NCBI RefSeq assembly: GCF_014174275.1
Contig: NZ_JABEQK010000002.1
Coordinates: forward strand, 372,001 to 436,000
Length of the DNA stretch: 64,000 nucleotides
Reading direction: 5' to 3'
Source of the DNA: Gluconacetobacter takamatsuzukensis
Lineage (GTDB): Bacteria; Pseudomonadota; Alphaproteobacteria; Acetobacterales; Acetobacteraceae
How positions within the stretch are numbered: the first letter of the stretch is position 1; each line of letters begins with the position of its first letter. The notes under the pieces are model-generated. The model saw nothing but the letters and a program-made list of their open reading frames with translations, made no database searches and was not told the origin of the DNA. Positions 3,244 through 48,517 of this stretch are shown here, piece by piece. Made by a program: the position numbers and the translations under genes.

Positions 3244-3284
3244 CAGGGGCCGGAGCGATCCGGCCCCTGTTTCCGTTCTTTTTT
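3244..3284 (+). terminator. Rho-independent terminator after rho
   Basis: Perfect 11-bp GC-rich stem (CAGGGGCCGGA at 3244-3254 with TCCGGCCCCTG at 3259-3269), a GCGA loop, then a T-rich run. It abuts a copy of the dispersed repeat beginning at 3275. Confidence 0.8.
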
Positions 3285-3405
3285 GAAAAAAAGAACCAAA
3301 AAACTTCTGATCTATTAGGTTTCGTCCCGAAACGAAGCCCTTCCCACCACACCGATCCAAAACGAATAAAAGTCTTTTGGCTTCTTTTTCGTAAGACAAA
3401 AGAAG
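3275..3405. repeat. Dispersed intergenic element, copy A (degenerate right hairpin)
   Basis: The left hairpin is GTTCTTTTTT-GA-AAAAAAGAAC (3275-3296). The right half matches AAAGTCTTTTTGCTTC of the other copies, but its hairpin (3381-3405) is imperfect. It lies between the convergent genes rho and the quinone oxidoreductase. Orientation is the same as copies G and H. Confidence 0.8.
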
Positions 3406-3409
3406 ATTT

Positions 3410-4381
3410 TCACGGCAACAGGATCGTGCTCCCTGTCGTCCCCCGAGACTCCAAAGCCGTCTGCGCCGCCCCAGCATCCGCCAGCGCAAACCGCTGCCCG
3501 ATGCGCACGCTCAGCACCCCCTGAATGATCAGGTCGAACAATTCCTTGGACCCGGCCAGCAGGGCCGAACGCTGGGCGAGATAAGTCGTCAACCCCGGCC
3601 GCGTCAGATACAGGCTGCCGCGCGTCGCCAGCATGCCCACCGAAACGCCCGTAACCTCGCCCGACGCATTGCCGTAGCTGACCATCAGCCCGCGCGGCGC
3701 AAGACAATCGAGGCTGGCGACGAATGTATCCTTGCCCACGCTGTCATAGACCACCGGCACCATGGCGCCGTCGGTCAGCTTGCGCACGCGCGCGGCCAGA
3801 TTGTCATGCCCGACCAGGATCTCGGCCGCGCCGTTCTGCCGCGCCAGTTCGCCCTTTTCCTCGGTCGAAACCACGCCGATCACACGCACGCCCAGATGCC
3901 GCGCCCACTGGCACAGCAGCAGCCCGACCCCACCGGCCGCCGCGTGGACCAGAATCGTCTCGCCGGCGCGCACCTCACGGACTTCGCGCAACAGCATGTG
4001 GGCCGTCAGGCCCCGCAACATGCAGCCGGCGGCGATATCGAAGGGAATATCCGGCGGCAGCGGCACAACCCGATCGGCCGCGATGGTGCGGCATTCGCCA
4101 TAGCCGCCCAGCGCCGTGGGATAGGCCACCCGATCCCCAGGCTCGAAATCGGTCACGCCCGCCCCGGCGGCCATGACCACGCCGGCCCCCTCCATCCCCA
4201 GGATGGCCGGCAGGGCGGGCACCTTGTACAGGCCGGTGCGGAAATAGATGTCGATGTAATTGACGCCGATCGCCTCCTGCCGGATCAGGATTTCACCCCG
4301 GCCGGGAACGGGCGTGGGCAGCGTCTCCAGTTGCAGAACCTCGGGGCCGCCATAGCCGTGGATGCGGATTGCCCTGTACAT
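3410..4381 (-). CDS. Zinc-free quinone oxidoreductase, MDR family (Qor-like)
   Basis: A 323-residue NADPH:quinone oxidoreductase of the medium-chain dehydrogenase/reductase superfamily. It has the N-terminal GroES-like domain ([14 protein letters not shown] at about 45-58) and a Rossmann domain with the [14 protein letters not shown] nucleotide-binding loop at about 147-160. The zinc-ligand cysteines of alcohol dehydrogenases are absent, as in Qor. The start at 4381 gives the family N-terminus ([16 protein letters not shown]). A further 54 in-frame codons upstream do not look coding. It converges on rho with repeat copy A between them. Physiological substrate unknown. Confidence 0.9.
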
Positions 4382-4416
4382 CGCCTGTATCCCTTTTCCT
4401 GTTCTGCCCGGCCGTA

Positions 4417-4890
4417 TCAGGCGTCCTGGTTCGCCAGCGCGGGGATCGGCGCCCGCTCCAGTTCCAGAAGATAGATCTTGTCCGTCAGCCCACCGTCCCC
4501 GGAATACCCGCCCAACCCCTGGGTCGAGACGACACGATGGCACGGAATCAGGATCGGAATCGGGTTGGCCCCGTTGGCCTGCCCGATGGACCGGGGCGAC
4601 CCGCCGACCTGCAGGGCCAGGTCGCGATAGGTCCGGGTCTCACCCAGCGGGATTCCGCGCAGCGCCTGCCACACTGCCTGCCGATAGGGCGTGCCGTACG
4701 GCGCCAGCGGCAGGTCCGCGAAATCGTCCGCTACCCCGTCGAAATAGGCGTCGAGCCGGTCGCAGGCCTGCCGCAGCAACGGCGTCTCGTCCTGATCGCG
4801 CCCCCAGCCCCAGTCCAGGGCGACGATCGCGCCGTCTTCCTCGGTCAGGGTCAGATCCCCGATGGGCGAGTGCATCGAAAGCTGCGGCAT
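4417..4890 (-). CDS. ogt: Methylated-DNA--[protein]-cysteine S-methyltransferase
   Basis: A 157-residue suicide repair protein that moves the methyl group of O6-methylguanine to its own cysteine. The active-site motif PCHRVV is at about residues 120-125, preceded by the HTH segment SPRSIGQANGANPIPILIP. The ATG at 4890 gives a compact N-terminal domain (MPQLSMHSPIGDLTLTEED). An open frame continues far upstream opposite mnmE/mnmG, but it is antisense shadow. The gene lies 35 bp upstream of the quinone oxidoreductase on the same strand and may be cotranscribed with it. It is divergent from mnmE. Confidence 0.93.
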   Translation of the reverse strand: MPQLSMHSPIGDLTLTEEDGAIVALDWGWGRDQDETPLLRQACDRLDAYFDGVADDFADLPLAPYGTPYRQAVWQALRGIPLGETRTYRDLALQVGGSPRSIGQANGANPIPILIPCHRVVSTQGLGGYSGDGGLTDKIYLLELERAPIPALANQDA

Positions 4891-5022
4891 ACCGGTCGTC
4901 CGTTCCCTTGATCCTGTATCCCGCACCATATCGGGACTGTCTGGTATTCTGTACCCTTCCGCCACAGGTTGCGACATGCAAGAGCGGCAAGCAGGCGCGA
5001 GATGACGACAGGACCCGACACG

Positions 5023-6330
5023 ATGCCCCCCGAACGGACCCAACCCGACGCACCGATCTTTGCCCTGGCCAGCGGGGCAGGGCGCGCGGCCATCGCGGTC
5101 ATGCGCCTGACCGGGGCGGGATGCGGCGCGATCCTCCGCCATCTGTGCGGCACGCTGCCGGCCCCGCGCCGGGCCACCCTGCGCGGATTGCGCCACGGGT
5201 CCATGCTGCTGGACCGCGCGCTGGTACTGTGGTTTCCCGGCCCCAACAGCTATACCGGCGAAGACAGCGCGGAACTCCACCTCCATGCCGGGCCTGCCGT
5301 CATCGCCGCCGTGGCCGACGCGCTGGTGGCCCTGGGCGCCCGCCCGGCCGAACCGGGCGAGTTCACCCGCCGCGCCTTCATGAACGGACGGCTGGACCTG
5401 ATCGAGGCCGAAGGCATCGCCGACCTGATCGACGCCGAAACCGAAGCCCAGCGCCGCCAGGCGCTGGAACAGGCCGACGGCAGCCTGAGCCACCTGTACG
5501 ACGGATGGGCCACACGCCTGCGCACCGTGCTGGCCCATCAGGAAGCCCTGATCGACTTCCCCGACGAAGACCTTCCACCCGCGATCGAACAGGCGCTGCT
5601 CGACGCACTGCGCACGCTGGCGGCCGAAATGCGCGCCCATCTCGACGATGGCGGCCGGGGCGAGCGCCTGCGCCGGGGCCTGCTGTTCGCCATCGTCGGC
5701 GCCCCCAATGTCGGCAAGTCCAGCCTGCTGAACCGGCTGGCCGACCGCGACGTGGCCATCGTCTCGCCCCGCGCCGGCACCACGCGCGACGCAATCGAGG
5801 TGCGGGTGGTGCTGGGCGACGTCCCCGTCACCCTGATCGACACCGCCGGCCTGCGCGAAACCGAGGACGAGATCGAGGCCGAGGGCGTCCGCCGCGCCCT
5901 GTTTCACGTGAAACAGGCCGACTGCGTCATCGGCATGTTCGACGGCGACACCCCGCCAGCCGATCTCCCCCAAAACGCCATCCTGGTCCGCAACAAGATC
6001 GACCTCGCACCCCCGGCAGACGGCCCCCCCGACACCATCGCCATCAGCGTCCAGCAGGGCACCGGCCTGCCAAGCCTGACCGAAGCGCTGGCCGACCGCG
6101 CCCGCGCCCTGACCGCCGCACAGGCCGGCCCGCCCCTGACGCGTGCACGCCATCGCGCCGCGATCGAAGAAAGCGCTGGCCATCTGGCCGCCGCACTCGA
6201 TATGCACTGGCCAGAGATGCGGGGCGAGGAGATGCGCCTGGCGATGCGCGCCCTGGGCCGGCTGACCGGCGCGGTCGGGGTCGAGGATCTGCTGGACACT
6301 GTCTTCGGCCAGTTCTGCATCGGCAAGTAA
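5023..6330 (+). CDS. mnmE: tRNA uridine-5-carboxymethylaminomethyl GTPase MnmE (TrmE)
   Basis: A 435-residue GTPase that, with MnmG, installs the cmnm5 group on wobble U34 of certain tRNAs. The order is an N-terminal tetrahydrofolate-binding domain ([10 protein letters not shown]), a helical domain, and a G domain with P-loop GAPNVGKS at about 226-233 and DTAGLRE. It ends in the invariant C-terminus FCIGK. The ATG at 5023 has an ACAGGA site at good spacing; 5002 is an alternative start. A parS palindrome lies inside the gene at 5900-5915 and encodes the peptide LFHVKQ. First gene of mnmE-mnmG-rsmG-parA-parB. Confidence 0.96.
5900..5915. promoter_or_regulatory. parS centromere site 1 (inside mnmE)
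   Basis: TGTTTCACGTGAAACA is a perfect 16-bp palindrome identical to the chromosomal parS recognised by ParB in many bacteria. It is read in frame as part of mnmE and lies about 3.7 kb from parB and 10 kb from the oriC candidate. Confidence 0.93.
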
Positions 6331-6345
6331 GGGGAGCGGACAAGC

Positions 6346-8208: not shown

Positions 8209-8828
8209 TGTTTCACGTGAAACCCGACACTCTCCCCGCCGATCTCGCCCAGCGCCTGGACCGCTTCGCCGAAATCCTTACCCGCTGGAACAGCCGCATC
8301 AACCTGGTCTCCCCCCGCGATCTCCCCCATCTATGGGACCGCCATATCGCGGACTCGCTGCAACTGGCCTCGCTGATCCCGCCCGGCATCCGCCTGGCCG
8401 ATCTCGGGTCGGGCGGCGGCTTCCCCGGCCTGATCATCGCCATCGCGACCGACGCCGACGTCACGCTGATCGAATCCGACCAGCGCAAGGCCGCCTTCCT
8501 GCGCGAGGCCGCGCGGGCCGCCGGCGCCCGCGTCACCGTGCTGGCGCGCAGGATCGAGGATGTCGACATCGCGCCGGTGCACATCGTCACCGCCCGCGCG
8601 CTGGCCGCCCTGCCGCAATTGCTGGAATGGAGCAGCCGCCTGCTGGCGCCCGACGGGTTCTGCCTGTTCCTGAAAGGCAGAAATGTCGACGATGAGTTGA
8701 CCTCGGCCGCCGCCGACTGGCACATGGCGGTATCCCGATTGCCTAGCCGCACCAATGCGGACGGTACCATTCTCAAACTGGGTGAAATCACGCGTGCCAG
8801 ACACTCAGAACGCGCAACGGGCCCCTGA
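8208..8828 (+). CDS. rsmG: 16S rRNA (guanine-527-N7)-methyltransferase RsmG (GidB)
   Basis: A 206-residue SAM-dependent methyltransferase that modifies G527 of 16S rRNA; in other species loss gives low-level streptomycin resistance. The SAM-binding loop is [13 protein letters not shown] at about 64-76. The ATG overlaps the mnmG stop. The first codons (MFHVKP) are themselves part of a parS-like palindrome at 8209-8224. Its 3' end overlaps the likely GTG start of parA. Length is typical. Confidence 0.95.
8209..8224. promoter_or_regulatory. parS centromere site 2 (start of rsmG)
   Basis: TGTTTCACGTGAAACC matches the parS palindrome at 15 of 16 positions. It overlaps the mnmG stop and codes for the first residues of RsmG, with its first base inside the ATG. 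Confidence 0.85.
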
Positions 8829-10526: not shown

Positions 10527-10556
10527 GAATGCAGGACATTTTTTCGATAAAACCGC

Positions 10557-10584: not shown

Positions 10585-10611
10585 GCGCGTCACCCGAGAG
10601 GGACACTCCAT

Positions 10612-10687
<76 letters not shown>

Positions 10688-10728: not shown

Positions 10729-10848
10729 CTTCTTTTTCTGAAGAAAAAGAAGCAAAAAGACTTCCATCCGTTCAGGACCATCGCGTGTCCCCAGCACAAA
10801 GCTCCTGAACGAATCAGGGTTTTTTGGTGCTTTTTTGCAAAAAAGCAC
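10729..10848. repeat. Dispersed intergenic element, copy B (complete)
   Basis: The S hairpin CTTCTTTTTC-TGAA-GAAAAAGAAG is at 10729-10752. The core contains a perfect 9-bp inverted repeat (CGTTCAGGA ... TCCTGAACG), and the L hairpin GTGCTTTTTTGCAAAAAAGCAC is at 10827-10848. The L stem has compensating changes (GTGC/GCAC instead of GTTC/GAAC). It lies between tRNA-Lys and the convergent esterase gene, where it can act as a two-way terminator. Confidence 0.88.
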
Positions 10849-10857: not shown

Positions 10858-11544
10858 TCAAGGCCGACGCGCCAGCCGCTCCACCAACGGCACCATCCGC
10901 GCCACGATGACGGCGACCCCGGCAGGGTTGGGATGAATATGATCCGCCTGTTCCAGCTCCGGATGCGCCGCCACGCCGTCAAGGAAGAACGGATCCCATA
11001 AAATACCCGGCCGGTGCGACAGCCGCTCGAACACGGCGCGAAAGGCCTGGCCATAGCCCGCGCCCATATTGGGCGGCGCATACATGCCCGACAGCAGCAC
11101 CGGCAGATGCGCCTGCTGCAACCGGTCCAGGATCGCCGTCAGGTTCTGTTCCATCCGCGCCGGGTCCAGCCCGCGCAACCCGTCATTGCCGCCCAGTTCC
11201 ACGATCACCGCGTCCGGATTATCGCCCAGCGCCCAGTCCAGCCGCGCCAGCGCATCGATGCTGGTATCGCCCGACACGCCGCCATCCAGGATCGTGATCG
11301 CATCGCCGCGCGCATCCAGCGCGGCCTGAAGGCGCGGCACGAAACCGTCCGCATGTGCCAGCCCATATCCGGCGGTCAGGGAATCCCCCAGCGCCAGAAT
11401 CCGCACCGGCCGGTCGGCCGCATGGACCGACATGGCGAAACCCGCCCACACACAGGCGACCAGAAAGCCAAAAACCGTTCGGGCCCGGTGCAGGCGGCGT
11501 GTAGCGTGCAGGCAGGACCATACCCTGTGGGAAGGAAAACGCAT
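10858..11544 (-). CDS. tesA: GDSL-type esterase / TesA-like lysophospholipase, exported
   Basis: A 228-residue SGNH hydrolase resembling periplasmic TesA (thioesterase I/protease I). The catalytic blocks are LALGDSLTAGYG (nucleophile Ser), GGNDGLRG, and DHIHPNPAG with the Asp-His pair. A hydrophobic signal-like segment FGFLVACVWAGFAMSVHA precedes the mature domain. The start at 11544 would share two bases with the divergent ABC gene's ATG. An internal ATG near 11430 would remove the signal peptide. Pairing with the divergent YbbA/YbbP-type ABC genes copies the tesA-ybbA-ybbP arrangement of enterobacteria. Confidence 0.88.
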   Translation of the reverse strand: MRFPSHRVWSCLHATRRLHRARTVFGFLVACVWAGFAMSVHAADRPVRILALGDSLTAGYGLAHADGFVPRLQAALDARGDAITILDGGVSGDTSIDALARLDWALGDNPDAVIVELGGNDGLRGLDPARMEQNLTAILDRLQQAHLPVLLSGMYAPPNMGAGYGQAFRAVFERLSHRPGILWDPFFLDGVAAHPELEQADHIHPNPAGVAVIVARMVPLVERLARRP

Positions 11545-12301
11545 GGACGGCGACGGGCTCCCGAATGGACGGACGACGCTGGTCGAGGCACAGGATCTGT
11601 GGCTGACAGTGCCGACCCGTGCCGGCGCGGTCAATCCGCGCCGGGGCGATGCAGGGCAGGGGGCATTGACGATCCTGCACGATGTCGGCCTGCGCGTGGC
11701 CGAGGGCGAGGCATTGGGCATCGTCGGCCCCTCCGGCTCGGGCAAGACATCCCTGCTGATGCTGCTGGCGGGGCTGGAACGCCCGACCCGCGGCACGATC
11801 CGCATCGCCGGCACCACGCTGGGCGCGCTGGACGAAGACGCGCTGGCCCGTTTCCGGCGCCAGACGATGGGCATCGTCTTCCAGTCCTTCCAGCTGATCC
11901 CCACCATGACGGCGCTGGAAAACGTGCTGGTGCCGCTCGAACTGGCAGGCCGCCCCGACGGTGCCGCCGCCGCCCGCGCGGCGCTGGACGCGGTGGGGCT
12001 GGGCCACAGGCTGGATCACCTGCCGGGCGAGCTTTCGGGCGGCGAACAGCAGCGCGTGGCCCTGGCCCGCGCCTTCGTCACCCGGCCGCGCCTGCTGCTG
12101 GCCGACGAACCGACAGGCAATCTCGACAGCCGCACCGGCGCGGCGGTGATGGACCTGATGTTCAGCCTGCAACGGCAATACGGCACCACGCTCGTCCTCA
12201 TCACCCACGACCCCGCCCTGGCGGCCCGCTGCGACCGCCGCCTGCGGGTCGATGACGGCCGCGTGCTGGCCGACCACCCGGTGCGGGAGCCCGCATCGTG
12301 A
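11543..12301 (+). CDS. ABC transporter ATP-binding protein, YbbA/LolD type
   Basis: A 252-residue ATPase of the MacB/LolD class. It has Walker A GPSGSGKTSLLMLL at about 67-80, signature LSGGEQQRVALARA, and Walker B LLLADEPTGNLD. The ATG at 11543 is preceded by GGAAGGA at ideal spacing. It overlaps the permease start by 4 bases (GTGA). By homology to YbbA-YbbP it may energise handling of lipids or lipid-linked compounds next to a TesA-like esterase. The actual substrate is unknown. Confidence 0.92.
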   Translation: MDGDGLPNGRTTLVEAQDLWLTVPTRAGAVNPRRGDAGQGALTILHDVGLRVAEGEALGIVGPSGSGKTSLLMLLAGLERPTRGTIRIAGTTLGALDEDALARFRRQTMGIVFQSFQLIPTMTALENVLVPLELAGRPDGAAAARAALDAVGLGHRLDHLPGELSGGEQQRVALARAFVTRPRLLLADEPTGNLDSRTGAAVMDLMFSLQRQYGTTLVLITHDPALAARCDRRLRVDDGRVLADHPVREPAS

Positions 12302-15148: not shown

Positions 15149-15268
15149 CTTCTTTTTCTGAAGAAAAAGAAGCAAAAAGACTTTCGATCCGTTCAGGACA
15201 ATCGCGTGCCCCAGCACAAGGCTCCCGACCGAATCAAGGTTTTTTGGTTCTTTTTTTCAAAAAAGAAC
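15149..15268. repeat. Dispersed intergenic element, copy C (complete)
   Basis: S hairpin at 15149-15172 and L hairpin GTTCTTTTTTTCAAAAAAGAAC at 15247-15268, with the conserved core CGTTCAGGACAATCGCGTGC between. Same orientation as copies B and E. It lies between the 3' end of maf and the upstream side of the tRNA-Ala promoter, both on the minus strand. Confidence 0.88.
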
Positions 15269-15276: not shown

Positions 15277-15915
15277 CTACGCAAGAACCACCCCATGCTG
15301 GCGCAAAAACCCCAGCAGCGGCAGCAAGGGCAGCCCCAGAATGGCCGCATGCTCGCCCACCACCCGCTCGAACAGATGAATCCCCACCCCCTCCAGCCGA
15401 TAGGCCCCGACCGAGGACAGGACGGCATCCCCTTCCAGATCCAGATAGGCATCGAGGAAGGATTCCGAAAACCGGCGCATGGTCAGTTCCGGCCGGGCGA
15501 CATGCTGCCAGATCACCTGTCCGTCGCGCATCACCACCACCGCGCTGTGCAGCACATGGGCCCGCCCGCGCAGTTCCAGCAACTGGGCACGCGCCGCCGC
15601 CCGGTCGGCGGGCTTCTCGAACCACACGCCGTCGCATTCCAGGATCTGGTCGGCGCCGATCACCACGCAATCGGGCTCCTGGATGCGCCGCGCCTTCAGC
15701 TCGGCCAGCATCAGCGCGCAATCGCCGGCCGACAGGCCCTCGGCATGCGCCGACTCCCGCACGGCGGCCTCGTCGATGCGCGCAGGGCGCGTTTCGGGGC
15801 GGATTCCCGCCTGTTCCAGCAGGTTGCGCCGGGTGACGGACTGGCTGGCCAGTACTATCCGGGGCGACTCGGCCTGTAGAAGAGTCGCGATTAGTACTAA
15901 TGACGAGTCGCTCAT
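15277..15915 (-). CDS. maf: Maf-family nucleoside triphosphate pyrophosphatase
   Basis: A 212-residue Maf/HAM1-like phosphatase that hydrolyses non-canonical or excess NTPs. The N-terminal motif LASQSVTRRNLLEQAGI (about 21-37) is a variant of the usual LASxSPRRxxLL. GADQILECDGVWFEKP contains the catalytic Asp region, and the C-terminal block SSVGAYRLEGVGIHLFE is well conserved. The start at 15915 has a GGAGAG site; earlier in-frame sequence is not coding-like. Maf facing hemE across the origin is a conserved alphaproteobacterial arrangement. Repeat copy C follows the stop. Confidence 0.9.
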   Translation of the reverse strand: MSDSSLVLIATLLQAESPRIVLASQSVTRRNLLEQAGIRPETRPARIDEAAVRESAHAEGLSAGDCALMLAELKARRIQEPDCVVIGADQILECDGVWFEKPADRAAARAQLLELRGRAHVLHSAVVVMRDGQVIWQHVARPELTMRRFSESFLDAYLDLEGDAVLSSVGAYRLEGVGIHLFERVVGEHAAILGLPLLPLLGFLRQHGVVLA

Positions 15916-16346
15916 GCGCAGGCTCTCCGTACTGAAAAAAAGAAACCCTGTGATCGGGCCGAACGAGTACTGGGGTACATGGGGATAGTACTCCACACGC
16001 TTCTTGATCGTACCGAGTACCGTGGACAACCCTCACAGCCGCCGACACGGTGGGTTGTACACAGCCCCATGTCGGCACATTCGGGATAACTCATCTAACC
16101 TTATGAATCCCCGTGTGAATGGAACTGTACACCTTGTGGGAAAGACGGGGTACGTTTTTGGAAATGCGGGTACCCCGTCATCCACAGGCCCTATCTACCT
16201 CCTCAGCGTTTCTTTCTTCTTATTTCATGTTTAGAGGTTGGTCCGGAAATCTGGTGACGACGTACCGCACCTTCCCTCGCGGTCCTGTCATCCCCGGAAA
16301 AAGTACGGGATAGTCCCGTGATGAACGATGTGACGGCGGACAGGCG
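15852..16346. other. Candidate chromosomal replication origin (oriC)
   Basis: The 430-bp gap between divergent maf and hemE, plus the first codons of maf. It holds DnaA-box-like nonamers: TCATCCACA (16178-16186, 8/9 to TTATCCACA), TTGTACACA (16055), CGTGGACAA (16021, reverse), TGTGGGAAA (16135, reverse) and TCGGGATAA (16081, reverse). An A/T- and pyrimidine-rich tract (about 16200-16233) could be the unwinding element. Fourteen GTAC sites lie at 15852-16306, and four GANTC sites are present. In Caulobacter and Rickettsia oriC also adjoins hemE, and parAB/parS lie 6-10 kb away here. Function is inferred. Confidence 0.78.
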
Positions 16347-19516: not shown

Positions 19517-20182
19517 ATGTGCGGGCGCTTCGCCAACACCCTGTCGCTGGAACAGATGCGCCAGGCTTTCCATATCGCCGCCGGCCCCACGCCCGACTGG
19601 ATGCCCTCATGGAACATCGCACCCCGCCAGCCGACGGCGGTGGTGCGCCGCCACCCGGTCAGTCACGATCTCCGGCTGGACCTGCTGTTATGGGGGCTGG
19701 TGCCCAACTGGGCCCACGATATGGGCCGCCAGCCGATCAACGCCCGGGCGGAAACCGTCGCCACCTCCGGCATGTTCCGCGCCGCCTTTCGCTCCCGCCG
19801 CTGCCTGGTGCCCGCAACCGCCTATTACGAATGGCAGGCCGGCCCCCCACCCCGCCAGCCCTGGGCCTTCGCCCGGCAGGACGGCCAGCCGCTGGCACTG
19901 GCCGCAATCTGGGAATCCTGGGAATATGAAGGCGATATCCTGCGCAGCTTCGCCATCGTGACCACCCAGGCCAACGCCGCCACCCGCGCCATTCACGACC
20001 GGATGCCCGTCCTCATCGCCGACCAGGACCGCGACATCTGGTTCAACGCCCCACCCGCCATCGCGGAACAATTGCTGGCCCCGGCGCCCGTCGACATGCT
20101 TCGCGCATGGCGTGTCGGGACACGGGTCAACAAGGTGGGGCATGACGGGCCGGATCTGCTGGTGCCGGTGGACGAGGCGTAG
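19517..20182 (+). CDS. yedK: SOS-response-associated peptidase family protein (YedK/HMCES)
   Basis: A 221-residue SRAP-domain protein that covalently traps abasic sites in single-stranded DNA. Cys2 immediately follows the initiator Met (MCGRFANTLS), as required for the thiazolidine crosslink. NARAETVATSGMFRAAF supplies the catalytic Glu, and IHDRMPVLI the conserved His. The start at 19517 is fixed by Cys2. The frame ends just before repeat copy D. Family members are often SOS-induced, but no LexA box was recognised here. Confidence 0.94.
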   Translation: MCGRFANTLSLEQMRQAFHIAAGPTPDWMPSWNIAPRQPTAVVRRHPVSHDLRLDLLLWGLVPNWAHDMGRQPINARAETVATSGMFRAAFRSRRCLVPATAYYEWQAGPPPRQPWAFARQDGQPLALAAIWESWEYEGDILRSFAIVTTQANAATRAIHDRMPVLIADQDRDIWFNAPPAIAEQLLAPAPVDMLRAWRVGTRVNKVGHDGPDLLVPVDEA

Positions 20183-20187: not shown

Positions 20188-20250
20188 GTTCTTTTTTGAA
20201 AAAAAGAACAAAAAAACCTTGATTCGTTCAGGGCTTTTTGCTGGGGCAGC
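20188..20250. repeat. Dispersed intergenic element, copy D (half copy)
   Basis: The L hairpin GTTCTTTTTTGAAAAAAAGAAC (20188-20209) is followed by part of the core (CTTGATTCGTTCAGGGCTTT). The S hairpin is missing. It lies between the convergent SRAP gene and the small exported protein. Confidence 0.8.
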
Positions 20251-28352: not shown

Positions 28353-29747
28353 ATGGACCGGCCAGCCGGCACAGTCCGGACCATGGGCCTGCCGTGGCGG
28401 GACCCGGACGACCTGCTGTGGGCATGGCGCGACGAACCCTGGCTGGCCTGCCTGGACAGCGGCGGCCCCCCCGGCCCCCGCGCGCGCTGGACCATCCTGT
28501 GCCGCCGCCCCGCCCATGTGCTGGACTGGCGCGGCGGTACCTGCCGGCAAGACGGCGCACCCATCCCCGGCACCGATCCGCTGGCGGCCCTGCGCGCCCT
28601 GCTGGCCCTGGCCCCGACCGCCGATGCCGGGCCATGGCCCTTCGCCGGCGGGGTCATCGGCTTCGCAGGCTACGGCGTGGGCCAGTGGGCCGAGGCCATT
28701 CCAACCCGCCATCCGGCCGACCCCACCCGGCCCGACCTGTCGGCGGCGCTCTACGACCACGCGCTCCTGTTCGACCGCACGCGCCGGCAGGTCCACCTGG
28801 CCACGATACGTCCGGACGCGGACCCGCTGTTCGCCGCCTTCCACGCCGAATGGGCCACCCTCCCGCATGCCCCCCCGCCGGCGGCGCTGCCGCGCGCGGC
28901 GTTCGTGCCCGACCGCACGCCGGGCGACTATGCCGCCGCCGTGGCGGCGGCGGTGGCCCGCATCGCGGACGGCGAGATCTTCCAGGTCAACATCACCGGC
29001 CGCCATGTCGCCCGCCGCCCGGCAGGCCTGGCCGATATCGACCTCTACCGGGCGCTGCGCCGGGCCTCCCCGGCGCCGTTCGGTGCCTGGCTGGCCTGCG
29101 GGGGCACCTTCAGCCTGCTATCGGCCTCGCCCGAGCGGTTCGTGCATCTGGGCCGCGACCGGGTGGCCCGCACCCGGCCGATCAAGGGCACCCGCCCCCG
29201 GGGCGCCACGCCGGAACAGGATGCGATCCAGCGCGCGGAACTGGCCGCCGACGACAAGGAACGGGCGGAAAACCTGATGATCGTGGACCTGATGCGCAAC
29301 GATCTGGGCCGCGTGGCGCGGATCGGCAGCGTCGGCGTGCCCGAGCTGCTGTCGGTCGAAACCTTCGCCCACCTCCATCACCTGGTGTCCGAGGTCGCGG
29401 CCACGCTGGCCCCGGGGCAGGACGCGATCGACCTGCTGCGCGCCTCCCTGCCGCCCGGATCGGTGACAGGCGCACCGAAACACCAGGCCATGCGCCTGAT
29501 CGACGATCTGGAGGCCTCGGCGCGCGGCCCCTATTGCGGGATCGTGTTCCGGATCGGAACCGACGGTGCCATGGACAGTTCAGTCATCATCCGCGCCCTG
29601 GCCACGACCCCCGATACGATCGTGGCGGCGGCAGGCGGCGGGATCACGATCCTGTCGGATCCCCAGCGGGAATACGCGGAAATGTGCCTCAAGATCGCCC
29701 CCCTGCTGGCCCTGTTCGGCGACCGACCGGCCGGGGCGGCGCCATGA
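28353..29747 (+). CDS. pabB: Aminodeoxychorismate synthase component I
   Basis: 464 residues of the chorismate-binding family. PIKGTRPRG carries the Lys typical of PabB rather than the Ala of TrpE; ERAENLMIVDLMRNDLGRV and PPGSVTGAPKHQAM are the catalytic blocks. With a glutamine amidotransferase it makes 4-amino-4-deoxychorismate for folate. The amidotransferase PabA is not here and may be shared with TrpG. Its stop overlaps pabC (ATGA), supporting the assignment over TrpE. Confidence 0.93.
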   Translation: MDRPAGTVRTMGLPWRDPDDLLWAWRDEPWLACLDSGGPPGPRARWTILCRRPAHVLDWRGGTCRQDGAPIPGTDPLAALRALLALAPTADAGPWPFAGGVIGFAGYGVGQWAEAIPTRHPADPTRPDLSAALYDHALLFDRTRRQVHLATIRPDADPLFAAFHAEWATLPHAPPPAALPRAAFVPDRTPGDYAAAVAAAVARIADGEIFQVNITGRHVARRPAGLADIDLYRALRRASPAPFGAWLACGGTFSLLSASPERFVHLGRDRVARTRPIKGTRPRGATPEQDAIQRAELAADDKERAENLMIVDLMRNDLGRVARIGSVGVPELLSVETFAHLHHLVSEVAATLAPGQDAIDLLRASLPPGSVTGAPKHQAMRLIDDLEASARGPYCGIVFRIGTDGAMDSSVIIRALATTPDTIVAAAGGGITILSDPQREYAEMCLKIAPLLALFGDRPAGAAP

Positions 29748-30541
29748 ATATCCTGTGGCTGGACGACAGGCTGGTCCCCAGGGAACAGGCAAGGATCGAT
29801 CCCACCGATCGCGGCTTCACCCTGGGCGACGGGCTGTTCGAGACCATGCGCGTCGCGGGCGGCCGCGTCGCCCACCTGCCGCGCCATCTCGACCGGCTGC
29901 GATGCGGCGCCGACACCCTGCTGTTTCCCCCGCCCGACCTGGACGTGATCGAGGGCGCGCTGGACCAGGTGATCCGCCGCAACGCGCTGGCGGAAGGCGC
30001 GCTGCGCCTGACGCTGACACGTGGCACGGGCCCGCGCGGCCTGCTCCCGCCCCACCGCCCGCACCCCACCCTTCTGGTCGCACCCTTTCCGGCCGCCCCC
30101 GCGCCGGGCCCCGCAAGACTGGTCATCAGCACCCGCATCCGGCGCGACGCGGATTCCCCCCTGTCGCGGATCAAGAGCCTGAATTACCTGCCCAATATCC
30201 TGGCGAGGCTGGAGGCCGAGCAGCGCGGCGCCGATGACGCCCTGCTGCTGAACGGCGCCGGCCGGGTGGCCGAAAGCACCGCCAGCACGGTACTGGCCGT
30301 GCGCGAAGGGCGGCTGCTGACCCCTCCGGTCAGCGACGGCGCGCTGCCCGGCATCGCCCGCGCCGTCCTGCTGGCGGCGGGGATGGTGGAAGAAGCCCCC
30401 CTGACCCCAGCCGACCTGTCCGGCGGCATGATCCTGGTCAACAGCCTGTCGGTGCGGCCGGTGGTCGGCCTGGAGGATGCGCCCTTGGCCATGGCGCTGG
30501 ACAGGGTCGCCGCGGTGCGGGAGTGCGTCTTCTTTTTCTGA
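29744..30541 (+). CDS. pabC: Aminodeoxychorismate lyase (class IV aminotransferase fold)
   Basis: 265 residues of the PLP fold-type IV family. DRGFTLGDGLFETMRV is at the N-terminus, and the PLP Lys is in SRIKSLNYLPNILA. NGAGRVAESTASTVLAV and LLTPPVSDGALPGIARA follow. It releases pyruvate from ADC to give p-aminobenzoate; D-amino-acid or branched-chain aminotransferase activity is less likely given pabB coupling. The last residues (ECVFFF) and the TGA stop lie inside repeat copy E, so the C-terminus appears to have been set by repeat insertion. Confidence 0.9.
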   Translation: MNILWLDDRLVPREQARIDPTDRGFTLGDGLFETMRVAGGRVAHLPRHLDRLRCGADTLLFPPPDLDVIEGALDQVIRRNALAEGALRLTLTRGTGPRGLLPPHRPHPTLLVAPFPAAPAPGPARLVISTRIRRDADSPLSRIKSLNYLPNILARLEAEQRGADDALLLNGAGRVAESTASTVLAVREGRLLTPPVSDGALPGIARAVLLAAGMVEEAPLTPADLSGGMILVNSLSVRPVVGLEDAPLAMALDRVAAVRECVFFF

Positions 30542-30647
30542 AGAAAAAGAAGCAAAAAGACTTTCACTCGTCTGGCATCCCGACGACGCCCGCAGGCTTT
30601 CCCTTAAAAAATCAAAAGTTTTTTGGTTCTTTTTTTCAAAAAAGAAC
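30529..30647. repeat. Dispersed intergenic element, copy E (complete; overlaps pabC stop)
   Basis: S hairpin at 30529-30552 and L hairpin GTTCTTTTTTTCAAAAAAGAAC at 30626-30647. The core between is the most diverged of the full copies. Lies between two genes on the same strand (pabC and purH). Confidence 0.85.
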
Positions 30648-30765: not shown

Positions 30766-32343
30766 ATGACCCAGACGCCAGTGCCGGTCCGCCGCGCCCT
30801 GATTTCCGTTTCCGACAAGACGGGGTTGCTCGACCTCGCCCGCGCCCTGGCGGCGCATGGGGCCGAGATCCTCTCGACCGGCGGGTCGGCCCGTACCCTG
30901 CGTGAGGCCGGGATCGCGGTGACGGAAGTGTCGGACCATACCGGCTTCCCGGAAATCCTCGACGGCCGGGTCAAGACGCTGGTGCCGCAGATCCATGGCG
31001 GCATCCTGGGCCGGCGCGACCTGCCGGCGCATGTCGCGCAGATGGAACAGCACGGCATCGCGCCGATCGACCTGGTGGCGGTGAACCTCTACCCGTTCGA
31101 GGCCACGGTGGCCTCCGGCGCCGGCGCCGAGGACTGCATCGAGAATATCGATATCGGCGGCCCGGCCCTGATCCGCGCGGCGTCCAAGAACCACGACCAT
31201 GTCGTGGTGCTGACCGACCCGGCGCAATACGGCGCCATCATCGCGGCGCTGGCGGAAGGCGGCACCACGCTGGAGGCCCGGCGCGCGCTGGCCGGCGCGG
31301 CCTATGCCCGCACCGCCGCCTATGACGCCGCGATCGCTGCCTGGTTCGCGGGCCAGCGCGGCGACGTCCTGCCCGAGCGCCTGACGGTGGCCGGCCAGCG
31401 TCGCGAGAGCCTGCGCTACGGCGAAAACCCGCACCAGCAGGCGGCCTTCTATGCCGACGGCAGCCAGCGCCCGGGCGTCGCCACCGCGCGGCAGATCCAG
31501 GGCAAGTCCCTGTCCTACAATAATCTCAACGACACCGACGCGGCGTTCGAGGCGGTGGCGGAATTCGACGCACCGGCGGTGGTCATCGTCAAGCACGCCA
31601 ATCCGTGCGGCATCGCGACGGCCGACAGCCTGTCGGCGGCATGGGACCTGGCGCTGCGCTGCGACCCGGTCTCGGCCTTCGGCGGCATCGTCGCCCTCAA
31701 CCGGACGCTGGACGCCGAGGCAGCGGCCCGCATCGCCGCGATCTTCACCGAGGTGATCGTGGCGCCCGACGCCACGGAAGAAGCGCGCGAGATCCTGGCC
31801 CGCAAGAAGAACCTCCGCCTGCTGCTGACCGGCGCGCTGCCCGACCCGGCCCAGGGCGGGGTCGTCATCCGCTCGGTCGCCGGGGGCTTCCTGGCCCAGA
31901 CGCGTGATAACGGCCGCATCGTCCCGGCCGACCTCAAGGTGGTGACGCAGCGCAAGCCGACCGAGGCCGAGATGGCGGACCTCATCTTCGCCTTCCGCGT
32001 CTGCAAGCACGTCAAGTCCAACGCCATCATCTACGCCAAGGGCCAGGCCACGGTCGGGATCGGCGCGGGGCAGATGAGCCGCGTGGACTCCGCGCGCATC
32101 GCCGCGATCAAGGGGGCGGAAGCCTCGCACGCGGCGGGGCTGGACAAGCCGCTGACGGCCGGCAGCGTGGTGGCGTCCGATGCGTTCTTCCCGTTCGCCG
32201 ACGGGCTGGAGGCCGCGATCGCGGCCGGCGCCACGGCGGTGATCCAGCCCGGCGGCTCGATCCGCGATGACGAGGTGATCGCCGCCGCCGACCGCGCCGG
32301 CATCGCCATGGTGTTCACAGGTATGCGCCACTTCCGGCACTGA
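30766..32343 (+). CDS. purH: Bifunctional AICAR formyltransferase / IMP cyclohydrolase
   Basis: 525 residues, the last two steps of purine synthesis. The N-terminal cyclohydrolase (MGS-like) domain has [15 protein letters not shown] and [16 protein letters not shown]. The formyltransferase domain has [39 protein letters not shown] and [13 protein letters not shown]. It ends with the canonical GMRHFRH. Full length. Purine synthesis connects to purU at 41 kb through formyl-tetrahydrofolate. Confidence 0.98.
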
Positions 32344-38515: not shown

Positions 38516-38537
38516 GTTCTTTTTTGAAAAAAGAAGA
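38516..38537. repeat. Dispersed intergenic element, copy F (single hairpin)
   Basis: Only the L-type hairpin, GTTCTTTTTTGAAAAAAGAAG, just after the ArnT-like stop and before the NMT1 gene on the same strand. Confidence 0.6.
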
Positions 38538-42069: not shown

Positions 42070-42276
42070 TCGTGTTTCCACCACGGGTCGCGGGGTGACG
42101 GGTATGTTTTGTTAATACTTTTTTGGTGTTGTTTCCGGGGTTCGATTGCCGTGGCAGAGTGCGGAAGGCATTGGGACATGCACATAAGATCTGGGTTTTA
42201 TAATTGTTTTTCGACAGAGATCTGAATCGGGTGAGCCGCGGTGACCGCGCGGCCCCAGGCCTAGGGGTGCGCCCGC

Positions 42277-44238: not shown

Positions 44239-44277
44239 TTGCCCGCCGCGCGCCTTTCCCGGCGCGCTCCCGCACGC

Positions 44278-45189: not shown

Positions 45190-45379
45190 GATGGATCGGG
45201 CAGGGCAGGTGGCGAAGGGGGCGTGAATCGGACGGCCAAGGCCGCCCTCCCGACTATAGACCGCGACCGAGGGCCGCGCGCCACGCCGCGATGCAGGAAA
45301 GCGCAGGATTCTGACAGCCGCCCCCGCGCGGCAATGGTGGTGGCCCGATAGGATGGCGGTCTTTCGGAGAGGGAACCGC

Positions 45380-46276
45380 ATGCTGGGCCTGCTGTTTTTG
45401 TGTGTCGTGCTGATCTGGGGCACCACATGGTTCGCCATCCACGTGCAGGTCGGCATTACCGTGCCGGGCACGGCGATCTTCTGGCGGTTCATGATCGCGT
45501 CGGCGGCGATGGGCGCATGGCTCTGCCTGTCCCGCCGGCTGCGCCCGGTCGCGTGGCGGACGCATCTGTGGCTGGCCCCGATGGGGGCATGCATGTTCTC
45601 GTGCAATTTCCTGGCGATCTACGGGTCCGAGGCCACGCTGGCCAGCGGCACCGTCTCGGTGATCTTCAGCGTGGCGACCCTGTTCAACACGCTCAACCAG
45701 TGGCTGTTCTTCCGCCTGCGCCCCAGCATGCGCAGCATCGCCGGCGGCTGTATCGCCATCGGAGGCGTGGCATGCCTGACCGGGCTGGGCGGCGTGGGCG
45801 GCATTTCGCATATCGGCGTGGCCCTGGCGCTGACGGGCACTTTCCTGTTCTCCTGCGGCAATATCCTGTCGCGCCGGGTGGCGATGGCGGGGGTGGACCT
45901 GCCCAACGCGGTCTTTCGCGGCATGCTGTGGGGCTGCGCGGTGCTGGGGGTCTGGCAGACGGCCCACGGCCAATCGCTGGCGGGCTCGGCCGACCCGGCC
46001 TGGATTGCCGCCCTGCTCTATCTCGCATTGCCCGGATCGGTGGTCGCCTTCCTGGCCTATCTGCATCTGGTGCACCGCATCGGTGCCGACCGCGCGGCCT
46101 ATACCACCATCCTGTCCCCGGTCGTGGCTTTGCTGATCTCGATCCTGTTCGAGGGCACGCAGTGGACGTCGGGCATGACGCTGGGGGTCGGGCTGGTGCT
46201 GCTGGGCAATCTCGTCACCTTTGCCCGGTGGGACAGCATTCGTCCTTTTTTGCAAAAAAGAACCAAAAAACCCTGA
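45380..46276 (+). CDS. DMT-superfamily (EamA/RhaT) exporter
   Basis: 298 residues, ten predicted helices as two EamA repeats (LGLLFLCVVLIWGTTWFAI at the start, VGLVLLGNLVTFARW at the end). ATG at 45380 with GAGAGGG upstream; TTG or other upstream starts would add non-conserved residues. Its last ten codons (FLQKRTKKP, stop TGA) are read from repeat copy G. It probably exports an amino acid or drug under control of the divergent AraC protein. Confidence 0.87.
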   Translation: MLGLLFLCVVLIWGTTWFAIHVQVGITVPGTAIFWRFMIASAAMGAWLCLSRRLRPVAWRTHLWLAPMGACMFSCNFLAIYGSEATLASGTVSVIFSVATLFNTLNQWLFFRLRPSMRSIAGGCIAIGGVACLTGLGGVGGISHIGVALALTGTFLFSCGNILSRRVAMAGVDLPNAVFRGMLWGCAVLGVWQTAHGQSLAGSADPAWIAALLYLALPGSVVAFLAYLHLVHRIGADRAAYTTILSPVVALLISILFEGTQWTSGMTLGVGLVLLGNLVTFARWDSIRPFLQKRTKKP

Positions 46277-46361
46277 TTCGTTCAGAAGCTTTGTGCCGGG
46301 GACATGCGATGTCCCTGAACGAACAAAAGTCTTTTTGCTTCTTTTTCTTCAGAAAAAGAAG
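46242..46361. repeat. Dispersed intergenic element, copy G (complete; encodes end of DMT gene)
   Basis: L hairpin at 46242-46263 (one end mismatched), core with CGTTCA/TGAACG inverted repeat, S hairpin CTTCTTTTTCTTCAGAAAAAGAAG at 46338-46361. Reverse orientation to B, C and E. Between convergent genes. Confidence 0.87.
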
Positions 46362-46367
46362 AGCCCT

Positions 46368-46967
46368 TCACTCTACCAAGCGCGGCACCGACTGCCCCCG
46401 CGTCAAATCGGCAATCCGCCCCACCACGTCATCCACATCGCCTTCGGGCACCGCAATCACCAGCCGCGCCCCCGCCGCGTCGAACGCCTCATCCTCCACC
46501 ACCGCATCCAGCGACGGCAGGCGCGCCTGCAAAAGGGCGAGATCACTGAAACCGCAATGAAAGACCAGGCGCGTCCGGCGCACGATCGGCACGCGCGGCG
46601 CCAGGCGCAGGCATTCCGCCGCCGTGCCGCCATAGGCACGCACCAGCCCGCCCGCACCCAGCTTGATGCCGCCGAACCAGCGGGTGACCACCACCACGAT
46701 ATTGTCGAAACCCTGCCCGTCGATCACCTGCAGGATCGGCCGGCCGGCCGTGCCGCCGGGCTCGCCGTCATCGTCGCTGCGATAATCCTGCCCGATGCGA
46801 TAGGCCCAGCAATTATGGGTGGCATCCAGGTCCGACACGGCGCGGACAAAGGCCAGGGCTTCGGCCGGCGTCGTCACCGGCGCGGCCTGCGCCAGGAACA
46901 CGCTCTTGCGCACGTCCCGTTCCAGTCGGGCGGGTTCGGCCAGCATCACCAGGCCGTCGGCGCTCAT
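46368..46967 (-). CDS. yigZ: YigZ/IMPACT family protein (UPF0029)
   Basis: 199 residues. The N-terminal domain has the family motif DDGEPGGTAGRPILQ with TRWFGGIKLGAGGLVRAYG, and the C-terminal domain is a short alpha/beta fold. Eukaryotic IMPACT binds GCN1; the bacterial role is unclear. It starts four bases inside the radA stop region (46964-46967), so it is coupled to radA. Confidence 0.88.
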   Translation of the reverse strand: MSADGLVMLAEPARLERDVRKSVFLAQAAPVTTPAEALAFVRAVSDLDATHNCWAYRIGQDYRSDDDGEPGGTAGRPILQVIDGQGFDNIVVVVTRWFGGIKLGAGGLVRAYGGTAAECLRLAPRVPIVRRTRLVFHCGFSDLALLQARLPSLDAVVEDEAFDAAGARLVIAVPEGDVDDVVGRIADLTRGQSVPRLVE

Positions 46968-48367
46968 GCTTCCTCGCCGTCCGTACCGCCGAACAACGCT
47001 ACCAGGTCGCCCAGATGGCCGATCTCATTCAGGTGTAGCCCCTCGGGCGCCACCAGTCTGGTGGTGCCGCGCGCAATGCGCCGGGGCAGGAAGGCGGCAT
47101 CGAAACCCAGTTTCTGGGCCTCCTTCAACCGGGCATCGACCTGCGCCACCTGCCGGATCTCGCCGGACAGGCCGATCTCGCCGAAATAGACGGCACCGGC
47201 ATGGGTCGGCTTGCCGGTGGCGGCCGAAACCAGCGCCGCGGCCACCGCCAGGTCCGCCGCCGGCTCCAGCACGCGCAGCCCACCCGCGATGTTCAGGTGC
47301 ACGTCCATGCCGTGCAGCTTCAGCCCGCACCGTGCTTCCAGCACCGCCAGCAGCATGTTCAGGCGCGACGTGTCCCAGCCCACCACGGCCCGGCGCGGCG
47401 CGGAATCGCCCGATTTGGGCGACAGCAGCGCCTGCACCTCCAGCAGCACCGGCCGCGTGCCCTCGATCCCCGCAAACACCGCCGAGCCGGCGATATTCCC
47501 CCGCCGCTCGGCCAGGAACAGCGCGGAGGGGTTCGGCACCTCGACCAGCCCTTGGTCGGTCATGGCAAAGACACCGATTTCGTCGGTCGCGCCGAACCGG
47601 TTCTTGGCGGCCCGCAGGATGCGGAACTGATGCCCGCGATCCCCCTCGAAATACATCACGGCGTCGACCATGTGCTCCAGCACGCGCGGACCGGCCAGTG
47701 CGCCTTCCTTGGTCACATGCCCGACCAGGATCAGACTGAACCCCCGCTGCTTGGCCAGCCGGATCAGTTCGAAGGCGGTCGCGCGCACCTGGCTGACGGT
47801 ACCGGGCGCGCTTTCCACAGATTCCAGCCACATGGTCTGGATCGAGTCGATGACGACCAGCGCCACATCGGGCTCGTTCTCCAGCGTGCCGGCAATGTCG
47901 GTCACGTTGATCGCGGCGGCAATCTCCAGCCCCGGCGCATCCAGCCCCAGCCGGCGCGCGCGCAGGCGGATCTGGTCCACCGCCTCTTCGCCCGAGATAT
48001 ATTTCACCCGCCGCCCGGCAGCCGCCAGCGCGCAGGCGGCCTGCAACAGCAGGGTCGATTTGCCGATGCCCGGATCACCGCCTACCAGCACCACCGACGC
48101 CGGCACCAGCCCCCCGCCCAGCACGCGGTCCAGCTCGGCCATCCGCGTGCCGATGCGCGGCGGCGGCTCGGCCGTGCCCGCCAGGCTGACGAACGCGACT
48201 TTGGCCCCCCGGGCGCGGCGCGGCGCGGCGCCTCCGGTGGCGGTGGGCTCCACCGCTTCCTCGACAATGCTGTTCCACGCGCCGCAGCTTTCGCACCGCC
48301 CGGCCCATTTGGGAAAGACGGCGCCGCAGGACTGGCAGACATAATGGGCGGAGGGACGGCGGGCCAC
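46964..48367 (-). CDS. radA: DNA repair protein RadA
   Basis: 467 residues. The N-terminal zinc finger has two CxxC pairs (CQSCGAVFPKWAGRCESCG), followed by a RecA-like ATPase with Walker A GGDPGIGKSTLLLQ at about 95-108. The RadA motif KNRFG and a Lon-like C-terminal domain (GGLRVLEPAADLAVAAAL) complete it. It drives branch migration in recombination. Start GTG at 48367. Repeat copy H lies upstream of it, between radA and mlaF. Confidence 0.96.
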   Translation of the reverse strand: MARRPSAHYVCQSCGAVFPKWAGRCESCGAWNSIVEEAVEPTATGGAAPRRARGAKVAFVSLAGTAEPPPRIGTRMAELDRVLGGGLVPASVVLVGGDPGIGKSTLLLQAACALAAAGRRVKYISGEEAVDQIRLRARRLGLDAPGLEIAAAINVTDIAGTLENEPDVALVVIDSIQTMWLESVESAPGTVSQVRATAFELIRLAKQRGFSLILVGHVTKEGALAGPRVLEHMVDAVMYFEGDRGHQFRILRAAKNRFGATDEIGVFAMTDQGLVEVPNPSALFLAERRGNIAGSAVFAGIEGTRPVLLEVQALLSPKSGDSAPRRAVVGWDTSRLNMLLAVLEARCGLKLHGMDVHLNIAGGLRVLEPAADLAVAAALVSAATGKPTHAGAVYFGEIGLSGEIRQVAQVDARLKEAQKLGFDAAFLPRRIARGTTRLVAPEGLHLNEIGHLGDLVALFGGTDGEEA

Positions 48368-48396
48368 GAGGGGAGACTCCGGAAAGGAAGGCAGTT

Positions 48397-48517
48397 GTTC
48401 TTTTTTGCAAAAAAAGAACCAAAAAACCCTGATTCGTTCAGGAGCCTTATGCTGGGGATATGCGAGGACCCAAAACGAATAAAAGTCTTTTTGCTTCTTT
48501 TTCTTCAGAAAAAGAAG
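48397..48517. repeat. Dispersed intergenic element, copy H (complete)
   Basis: L hairpin GTTCTTTTTTGCAAAAAAAGAAC (48397-48419), core with CTGATTCGTTCAGGAGCC, S hairpin at 48494-48517. Same orientation as G. Between two minus-strand genes, at the 3' end of mlaF. Confidence 0.88.

What the first reader, a model, noticed from the sequence alone, without database searches (positions are those of the whole stretch)
3275..48517. Dispersed S-core-L element of about 120 bp at eight intergenic sites
Copies at 3275, 10729, 15149, 20188 (half), 30529, 38516 (half), 46242 and 48397. Each full copy has hairpin S (CTTCTTTTTC stem), a core with CGTTCA...TGAACG and hairpin L (GTTCTTTTTT stem), in either orientation. 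All adjoin a gene 3' end. A/T stems are odd in this GC-rich genome. L of copy B keeps pairing through paired changes (GTGC/GCAC), which argues for selected structure.
Basis: partly seen in the sequence, partly recalled or inferred. Interest (0 to 1): 0.8.

Follow-up and report, generated by a model that had tools for sequence, protein, structure and literature searches.

The report
Dispersed two-way terminator-like gene-end element
A 120-base palindromic repeat sits just after the stop codons of dozens of genes in this acetic-acid bacterium, and relatives carry it too; it probably stops transcription from both sides, with ends that hardly change around a middle hairpin that varies widely.

Summary
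The observation largely holds. In the window six full copies (A, B, C, E, G, H) and one half copy (D) are supported; site F is only a short palindrome. The element is not local: 68 sites in the stretches fetched from this Gluconacetobacter genome, and its S-end motif in 49 of 200 family genomes, 30 of 102 genera, with no reversed-control hits.

Anatomy: S palindrome, A-rich linker, core hairpin, T-rich linker, L palindrome. Cores differ between genera yet tend to fold (mean z -3.2, 24 of 40 parsed). In this genome 40 of 50 full copies lie within 20 nt of a stop codon, 2 of 50 within 20 nt of a start. At orthologous intact copies the ends differ by 5-8%, core 19-23%, coding 13-14%, flanks 32-41%.

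Most likely it is a dispersed bidirectional intrinsic terminator, kept by selection and partly homogenised by gene conversion. Termination is inferred; no RNA data were available. It is not a REP by the tests run (no GTAG/CGTC tag; no PF01797 transposase in 6 Gluconacetobacter genomes). How it spreads is unresolved.

The parts
3275..3405 (-). Full copy A, between rho (1931-3232, +) and a zinc alcohol dehydrogenase gene (3410-4381, -); a GC-rich hairpin 3240-3273 runs into its L T-tract
10729..10848 (+). Full copy B, after parB and a tRNA, about 10 nt from the stop codon of a GDSL lipase gene (10858-11634, -); L arms GTGC/GCAC
15149..15268 (+). Full copy C, 8 nt from the stop codon of a maf gene (15277-16029, -)
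20188..20249 (-). Half copy D (L end and part of the core), 5 nt after the stop codon of a SRAP peptidase gene (19517-20182, +)
30529..30647 (+). Full copy E; the aminotransferase gene 29744-30541 (+) ends inside its S palindrome; an AICARFT/IMPCHase (purH-type) gene follows at 30766
46242..46361 (-). Full copy G, 6 nt from the stop codon of a UPF0029 gene (46368-46967, -)
48397..48517 (-). Full copy H, 6 nt from the stop codon of an ABC-transporter ATPase gene (48524-49315, -)
10729..10752 (+). S palindrome of copy B: CTTCTTTTTC TGAA GAAAAAGAAG
   Evidence: sequence
10753..10763 (+). A-rich linker of copy B (T-tract for the opposite strand)
   Evidence: sequence
10769..10811 (+). Core hairpin of copy B, closed by CGTTCAGG / CCTGAACG
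   Evidence: sequence
10820..10826 (+). T-rich linker of copy B (TTTTTTG)
   Evidence: sequence
10827..10848 (+). L palindrome of copy B: GTGCTTTTTT / AAAAAAGCAC
   Evidence: sequence
38516..38537 (.).

Best explanation
The element is a dispersed bidirectional intrinsic (Rho-independent) terminator. Read from either side, the transcript passes a stop codon, then an end palindrome (S or L, about 20-24 nt), then an A-rich linker, then the core hairpin; the T-rich linker and the T-rich arm of the far palindrome then supply the U-tract where RNA polymerase would be released. The near palindrome also acts as a spacer that moves the core hairpin out of the footprint of the terminating ribosome, and may cap the mRNA 3' end. 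Copies were spread through the genome before this species and its two sisters G002 and G005 split. They are held by selection on the ends and on the core stem, and are partly homogenised by gene conversion between copies. Shown: sequence, dispersal, position, conservation, foldability. Inferred: termination, the role of the near palindrome, gene conversion.
For: Position: 40 of 50 full copies at most 20 nt from a stop (overlaps counted), 11 of 50 on both sides, 2 of 50 at most 20 nt from a start. Random placement inside the same gaps gives a mean of 21.4 and a maximum of 30 in 5000 trials against 35 of 45 observed; 20 of 23 tandem copies are nearer the stop. Congeners: 35 of 43 within 20 nt of a stop, 6 of 43 within 20 nt of a start. 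Other genera: 19 of 30 (my count). Two annotated plasmid copies in Pseudoroseomonas start 4 and 6 nt after a CDS end. Anatomy: the core hairpin lies between an A-tract and a T-tract on both strands; in the window 24 of 30 hairpins with tail score at least 5 lie in the seven copies (my count). Conservation at orthologous copies intact in both species: ends 5-8%, core 19-23%, coding 13-14%, flanks 32-41% divergence (12 and 8 sites). Cores of other genera fold (mean z -3.24, 24 of 40 parsed), although in four of five of those genomes cores are hardly more alike within a genome than between genomes. Conversion: the S loop form differs between G000 and G002 at 5 of 13 typed sites, and between G000 and G005 at 1 of 11 (my counts).
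Against: No RNA ends were available. Within the genus, pair covariation is not clearly above shuffling, and a single long hairpin (-41.4) and three hairpins (-39.5 kcal/mol) are nearly equal. The end-divergence figures use only copies intact in both species, which favours low values; 6 of the 26 copies found in G002 and G005 are truncated and one more site keeps only a core. Sites that lack the element do not in general carry another strong hairpin (mean z -0.47 over 54 sites), so termination there is dispensable or done by Rho. Hairpins alone do not discriminate: 129 window sites passed the looser tail cut, many inside genes. Terminator function does not by itself explain why the outer arms are fixed in sequence. 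Tandem copies show no consistent orientation: S-first to L-first 17:6 in this genome, 12:21 in congeners.
Confidence: 0.6

Rival explanations
1. A MITE-like non-autonomous transposon without host function. The two ends are 48-bp imperfect inverted repeats recognised by a transposase; copies survive at gene 3' ends because insertion elsewhere is harmful.
For: Dispersed, both orientations, inverted-repeat ends, a shared core in this genome (identity 0.82 among its 12 best-scoring copies against 0.51-0.56 to other genera), copy numbers that differ widely between species, tandem arrays in two viral-collection contigs.
Against: No target duplication seen and no clean empty site: 26 of 30 G002/G005 sites examined are occupied, in the same orientation, and none of 50 sites of five other species (my counts; orthology rests on BLAST of the gene end). 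Ends of intact copies are more conserved than coding DNA at fixed sites. In tandem gaps copies sit by the stop, not at random. No transposase linked to the ends was found, but only PF01797 was searched for.
Confidence: 0.17
2. A REP-like mRNA 3'-end element: the near hairpin blocks 3' exonucleases or slows ribosomes at the stop codon, and termination happens elsewhere.
For: Distance to stop codons (median 8 nt in own tandem copies) falls in the under-16-nt range in which E. coli REPs act on translation (PMC12306157, passages). The outer hairpins are among the best conserved parts.
Against: Would not need T-tracts on the far side or a second palindrome; the end stems are A/T-rich.
Confidence: 0.12
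3. A DNA-level signal: the A/T palindromes bind a nucleoid or segregation protein, or serve as DNA uptake signals.
For: End sequences are conserved beyond pairing needs (157 of 219 S-like arms identical). Copies in three complete genomes cluster around parS (KS p 1.6e-5, 0.02, 2e-4). Uptake signals form terminators in Neisseria and Pasteurellaceae (PMC1852404, passages).
Against: Position is tied to stop codons and the core tends to keep a stem, which a binding site does not need. Several G003 and G012 sites look like the same loci, so the clustering is not three independent cases. Own genome has 59 S sites, far below the roughly 1,000 or more given for uptake signals in PMC1852404.
Confidence: 0.08

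Closest known systems
Bidirectional intrinsic terminators with A-tract and T-tract (common in low-GC Firmicutes; PMC1590033, passages)
   Same: Hairpin with A-run before and T-run after, near stop codons, favoured between convergent genes.
   Different: Here a sequence-related repeat family with conserved end palindromes in a 67.7% GC alphaproteobacterium; [quoted passage not shown]
REP/BIME elements of enterobacteria and pseudomonads (PMC2817692, PMC12306157, PMC1525189; passages)
   Same: Dispersed palindromes at gene 3' ends, often between convergent genes, some close to stop codons, paired units in inverted order.
   Different: No GTAG/CGTC tag, A/T-rich end stems, no PF01797 match in 6 Gluconacetobacter genomes; core hairpin changes sequence between genera.
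DNA uptake signal pairs used as terminators in Neisseria and Pasteurellaceae (PMC1852404, passages)
   Same: One repeated sequence family supplies terminator hairpins, enriched tail-to-tail.
   Different: 120 bp rather than about 9-11 nt, far fewer copies, no known uptake role.
ERIC/RU-type MITEs (PMC2759123 and PMC10969869, search listings with start of abstract only)
   Same: Small mobile-type repeats (127, 168 and 103 bp in the listing) in many intergenic sites; that ERIC is an imperfect palindrome is recalled.
   Different: No target duplication or empty site shown here; S motif shared by 30 of 102 sampled genera.

Membership tests
Intrinsic terminator | Stable hairpin | tested here: met
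   Core mean z -3.04 (43 of 50 own), -2.70 (54 of 59 congener copies), -3.24 (24 of 40 other genera); about 62-70% of parsed cores have z below -2
Intrinsic terminator | T-tract directly after the hairpin | tested here: met
   24 of 30 window hairpins with tail score at least 5 lie in the seven copies, both strands (my count)
Intrinsic terminator | Location downstream of genes | tested here: met
Intrinsic terminator | Releases RNA polymerase | not testable with these tools
   needs RNA 3'-end data or an in vitro assay
REP (GTAG/CGTC super-families) | GTAG or CGTC tag at the palindrome end | tested here: not met
   Aligned ends are CTTC...GAAG and GTTC...GAAC; PMC3733652 also reports no CGTC repeats in Acetobacteraceae (passage)
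REP | RAYT (PF01797) gene flanked by the repeats | tested here: not met
   0 of 6 Gluconacetobacter genomes; 3 of 14 other family genomes have a PF01797 match; in the 3.2-3.3 kb around each, no flanking S-L pair, one with a single L-like match
MITE | Terminal inverted repeats | tested here: met
   48-bp imperfect repeats; many copies match the model on both strands
MITE | Target-site duplication and clean empty sites | tested here: inconclusive
   No duplication evident by eye in 50 own copies; flanks of 54 element-free sites too diverged
MITE | Autonomous relative with the same ends | not tested
   Only PF01797 was searched for
DNA uptake signal | Around 1,000 or more copies per genome | tested here: not met
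   59 S sites in own genome; highest total seen 498 with a loose pattern
Known Rfam RNA family | Match above gathering score | tested here: not met
   None at gathering score over a copy; around copy B only a sub-threshold hit, RF04343, 17.4 against 55.8 bits, E 0.97

The most novel reading that the evidence does not exclude
A family-wide modular terminator system: conserved S and L end cassettes (S motif seen in 30 of 102 sampled genera; whole S-core-L read in about ten) frame an exchangeable core hairpin. The ends are read by a trans-acting factor (a recombinase or conversion route, or a termination or RNA-end protein) that places, swaps or renews cores at stop codons. Dozens to perhaps hundreds of gene ends per genome would then share one mobile, replaceable two-way terminator.
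Probability: 0.18. Interest if true: 0.75.

Novelty: new variant of a known kind. Interest (0 to 1): 0.55.

Why it matters
Terminators are usually seen as independently evolved sequences. Here one repeat family appears to supply them at dozens of gene ends per genome in many members of a bacterial family. It is a ready test case for whether terminators can spread and be homogenised as dispersed elements, and a possible source of compact two-way terminators for acetic-acid bacteria. It also explains unannotated A/T-rich repeats in these GC-rich genomes.

Tried and rejected
Structure by covariation inside the genus: rejected as evidence; observed scores not clearly above shuffles.

Terminus clustering: rejected. 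Copies of three complete genomes looked terminus-centred until parS was located; the bias is towards the parS side. By eye the 79 sites of G098 show no such clustering.

Orientation bias as proof of one-way termination: rejected; 17:6 in own genome, 12:21 in congeners.

General replacement of the element by other terminators in species that lack it: not supported; mean z is -0.47 over 54 sites. Four of the 54 clearly carry another repeat (30-mer within 1 mismatch), 8 of 54 with a loose pattern.

Copy-number ceiling: the 498 and 190 places counted in G155 and G139 with the 20-mer fall to 128 and 2 with one more base required, so most of those are another variant that I did not resolve; G079 keeps 158 of 160. 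I lowered the novel-case probability from 0.20 to 0.18 after this check, also because only S, not L, was searched across the 200 genomes.

First gene finder was trained partly on antisense ORFs and discarded; the second was used.

Outer flank mini-stem GAAG..CTTC: enriched (56% against 27% of shuffles on the S side, 35% against 22% on the L side) but not general, so not made part of the claim.

Phage or plasmid carriage: no phage match to a full copy; the 44-nt S end gave only weak phage rows, best listed E 0.06. Two genuine plasmid records, both Pseudoroseomonas. The 20 viral-collection stretches were not tested for being provirus edges.

Papers: none found that describes the element, in searches (five sequence strings), 77, 96, 97 and 103; the library is open-licence only. 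Of the papers cited I saw passages only, or the search listing where said.

Counts and drops: 19 of 30 and 17 of 30, 24 of 30, 26 of 30 and 50 of 50, 5 of 13 and 1 of 11 were counted by me from printed rows. Of the rows listed I carried 81 forward (weaker ones left out) and fetched 80 of those 81 regions. Core folding left out copies whose linkers my pattern could not parse (7 of 50, 5 of 59, 16 of 40). Control gaps include the gaps that hold the element. The 12 own cores are the best-scoring ones. L ends found by script have no chance control. Gene contexts rest on my own hexamer gene finder except.
Full report
What was checked. Six are full copies of about 120 bp, one (D) is a half copy, and F is a 22-nt palindrome without support. 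The hairpin pattern gives 23 matches in the window and none in 100 shuffles.

Genome-wide. A DNA search with copy B finds about 40 good copies (which scored 40 of 69 candidates). The S-end pattern has 59 places and none for the reversed control; the L-end pattern has 35. Covariance model R1 gives 107 matches, many of them the same site on both strands (which scored 150 of 690 candidates). In the 46 stretches that I fetched and the window, nhmmer gives 68 distinct sites, of which 50 are near full length.

Anatomy. Read S to L: CTTCTTTTTC-TGAA-GAAAAAGAAG, then CAAAAAGACTT, then a core closed by CGTTCAGG/CCTGAACG, then GTTTTTTGG, then GTTCTTTTTT-TC-AAAAAAGAAC. The whole is also one imperfect palindrome, and the core is inverted in some copies (for example L030). 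As RNA, one long hairpin (-41.4 kcal/mol) and three separate hairpins (-39.5) are nearly equal for the consensus.

Is structure selected? Inside the genus the arms are almost fixed, so covariation says little: 108 sequences, score reached by 66 and 107 of 500 shuffles for the two folds. Other genera say more. In G014 and in G098, G155, G079, G092, G117 and G139 the loci were chosen on the S end or on BLAST to copy B, yet an L-like end follows in the 10 G014 loci as I read them and in 17 of 30 other loci by script. Their cores differ, yet mostly fold: mean z -3.24 in 24 of 40 parsed copies, for example -9.8, -8.3 and -6.8; four of the 24 have z above -1. Compensated arms occur: GTTCTTTCTT/AAGAAAGAAC in G014 and G092, GCGACTTTTTT/AAAAAAGTCGC in L227, CTTCTTTTTG/CAAAAAGAAG (3 of 219 S-like arms).

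Distribution. The S motif with at most one mismatch is in 49 of 200 family genomes, 30 of 102 genera, with 0 reversed-control hits. The highest totals there, 498 in G155 and 190 in G139, drop to 128 and 2 when one more base is required; G079 has 158 by the stricter pattern. Named carriers are six Gluconacetobacter species, Nguyenibacter vanlangensis and a Rhodospirillales MAG; Pseudoroseomonas cervicalis plasmids carry full copies. The phage collection gave no match to a full copy.

Position. Of 50 full own copies, 40 lie at most 20 nt beyond a stop codon on at least one side (overlaps counted), 11 on both sides, and 2 lie at most 20 nt from a start. By context 25 are convergent, 23 tandem, 3 divergent (51 copies); gaps of at least 30 nt in the same stretches, element gaps included, were 55 convergent, 143 tandem, 60 divergent. 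Placing copies at random inside their own gaps gives a mean of 21.4 and a maximum of 30 in 5000 trials, against 35 of 45 observed; of 23 tandem copies 20 are nearer the stop, median 8 nt against 97 nt to the start. In congeners 35 of 43 lie within 20 nt of a stop and 6 within 20 nt of a start. In other genera 19 of 30 lie within 20 nt of a stop. RefSeq-annotated plasmid genes end 4 and 6 nt before S.

History. For 17 own sites I searched the adjoining gene end in seven congeners and read 80 regions. G002 has the element at 13 of 16 sites and G005 at 13 of 14, in the same orientation as G000 at every shared site; 6 of these 26 are truncated. G001, G003, G008, G009 and G011 have it at none of 50. 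At sites intact in both species the ends differ by 5.0-7.5% (G002) and 4.8-5.9% (G005), the core by 19-23%, the last 150 nt of the gene by 13-14%, the 25-nt flanks by 32-41% (12 and 8 sites). Restricting to intact copies favours low end values. So these copies are old and the ends of surviving copies are held. Some copies have decayed to the core stem (G005 at C7:137455, G002 at C8:89463).

Exchange between copies. S comes in two main loop forms, TGAA and GTCTTCC/GTCTTAC, which differ by a block. G000 and G002 disagree at 5 of 13 typed sites, G000 and G005 at 1 of 11. Repeated point mutation is unlikely to do that; gene conversion between copies is the simpler reading (inference). Core identity is 0.82 among the 12 best own copies against 0.51-0.56 to other genera; G098 shows the same more weakly (0.68), while in G155, G079, G092 and G014 cores are hardly more alike within the genome (0.56-0.58) than between (0.50-0.57) (5 to 10 copies each). 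Conserved ends around changing cores were thus seen in four of the five other genomes compared.

Likely function. A stem between an A-tract and a T-tract, on both strands, right after stop codons and often between convergent genes, is the layout of a bidirectional intrinsic terminator (general knowledge; PMC1852404 and PMC1590033, passages read). In the window, 24 of the 30 hairpins with a tail score of at least 5 lie in the seven copies (my count), though this partly follows from their T-richness and 129 sites pass the looser cut. Termination itself is inferred. [quoted passage not shown] this family would be an exception.

Against. No RNA data. Sites without the element are not in general replaced by strong hairpins. 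The function does not by itself demand such strict conservation of the outer arms, so a binding factor remains possible. Tandem copies show no consistent orientation.

Comparison. REP membership fails on tag and on RAYT (0 of 6 Gluconacetobacter genomes; 3 of 14 other genomes have PF01797, none flanked by an S-L pair in the stretch read). MITE membership is open. Rfam has no match at gathering score over a copy. Searches found no description in the held open-licence library.

Origin-side clustering. In three complete genomes copies lie closer to parS, taken as a marker of the origin side, than expected (KS p 1.6e-5, 0.02 and 2e-4). G003 and G012 share several sites and are not independent. The window itself holds parA, parB and two parS-like sites.

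Noticed in passing
L147, L152, L156, L157 (G001, G008, G009 at the sites matching C2:124613 and C2:193312): A different dispersed repeat, GAATGGGATGCAAGGGCCGAGGCCCTTGCC with flanking hairpins, sits at the same gene ends in species that lack this element.
   Followed up: partly
L104 3987-4188 and 6368-6562: Longer variants of about 200 nt with the same L and S ends but another core that shares AAAGACTATGGATTTTT.GGAATAC.
   Followed up: no
L253 3960-4320 and L254 3800-4070: Head-to-tail arrays with a unit of about 148 nt; what looks like the same locus has two full units and part of a third in one contig and two units in the other.
   Followed up: partly
window 5900-5915 and 8209-8224: Two parS-like sites, in mnmE and at the start of rsmG, beside parA and parB: the window covers a chromosome segregation region.
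   Followed up: partly
window 1931-3405: The gene for Rho itself is followed by a GC-rich hairpin whose T-tract is the L arm of copy A.
   Followed up: no
window 63677-63846 and 50204-50278: FMN riboswitch and an mmgR (suhB-type) small RNA by Rfam.
   Followed up: no
L138 (G003, site matching C13:70615): Where sister species have the element, G. diazotrophicus has TTCCTTTTCCTCGGAAAAGGAA, another pyrimidine-purine palindrome after the gene.
   Followed up: no
G155 and G139: Hundreds of near-matches to the S motif vanish when one more base is required, so a related but different repeat is abundant there.
   Followed up: no
G098 contig C1, 2.99-3.44 Mb: A stretch of about 446 kb without any listed S site in a genome that has 79 in all.
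   Followed up: no
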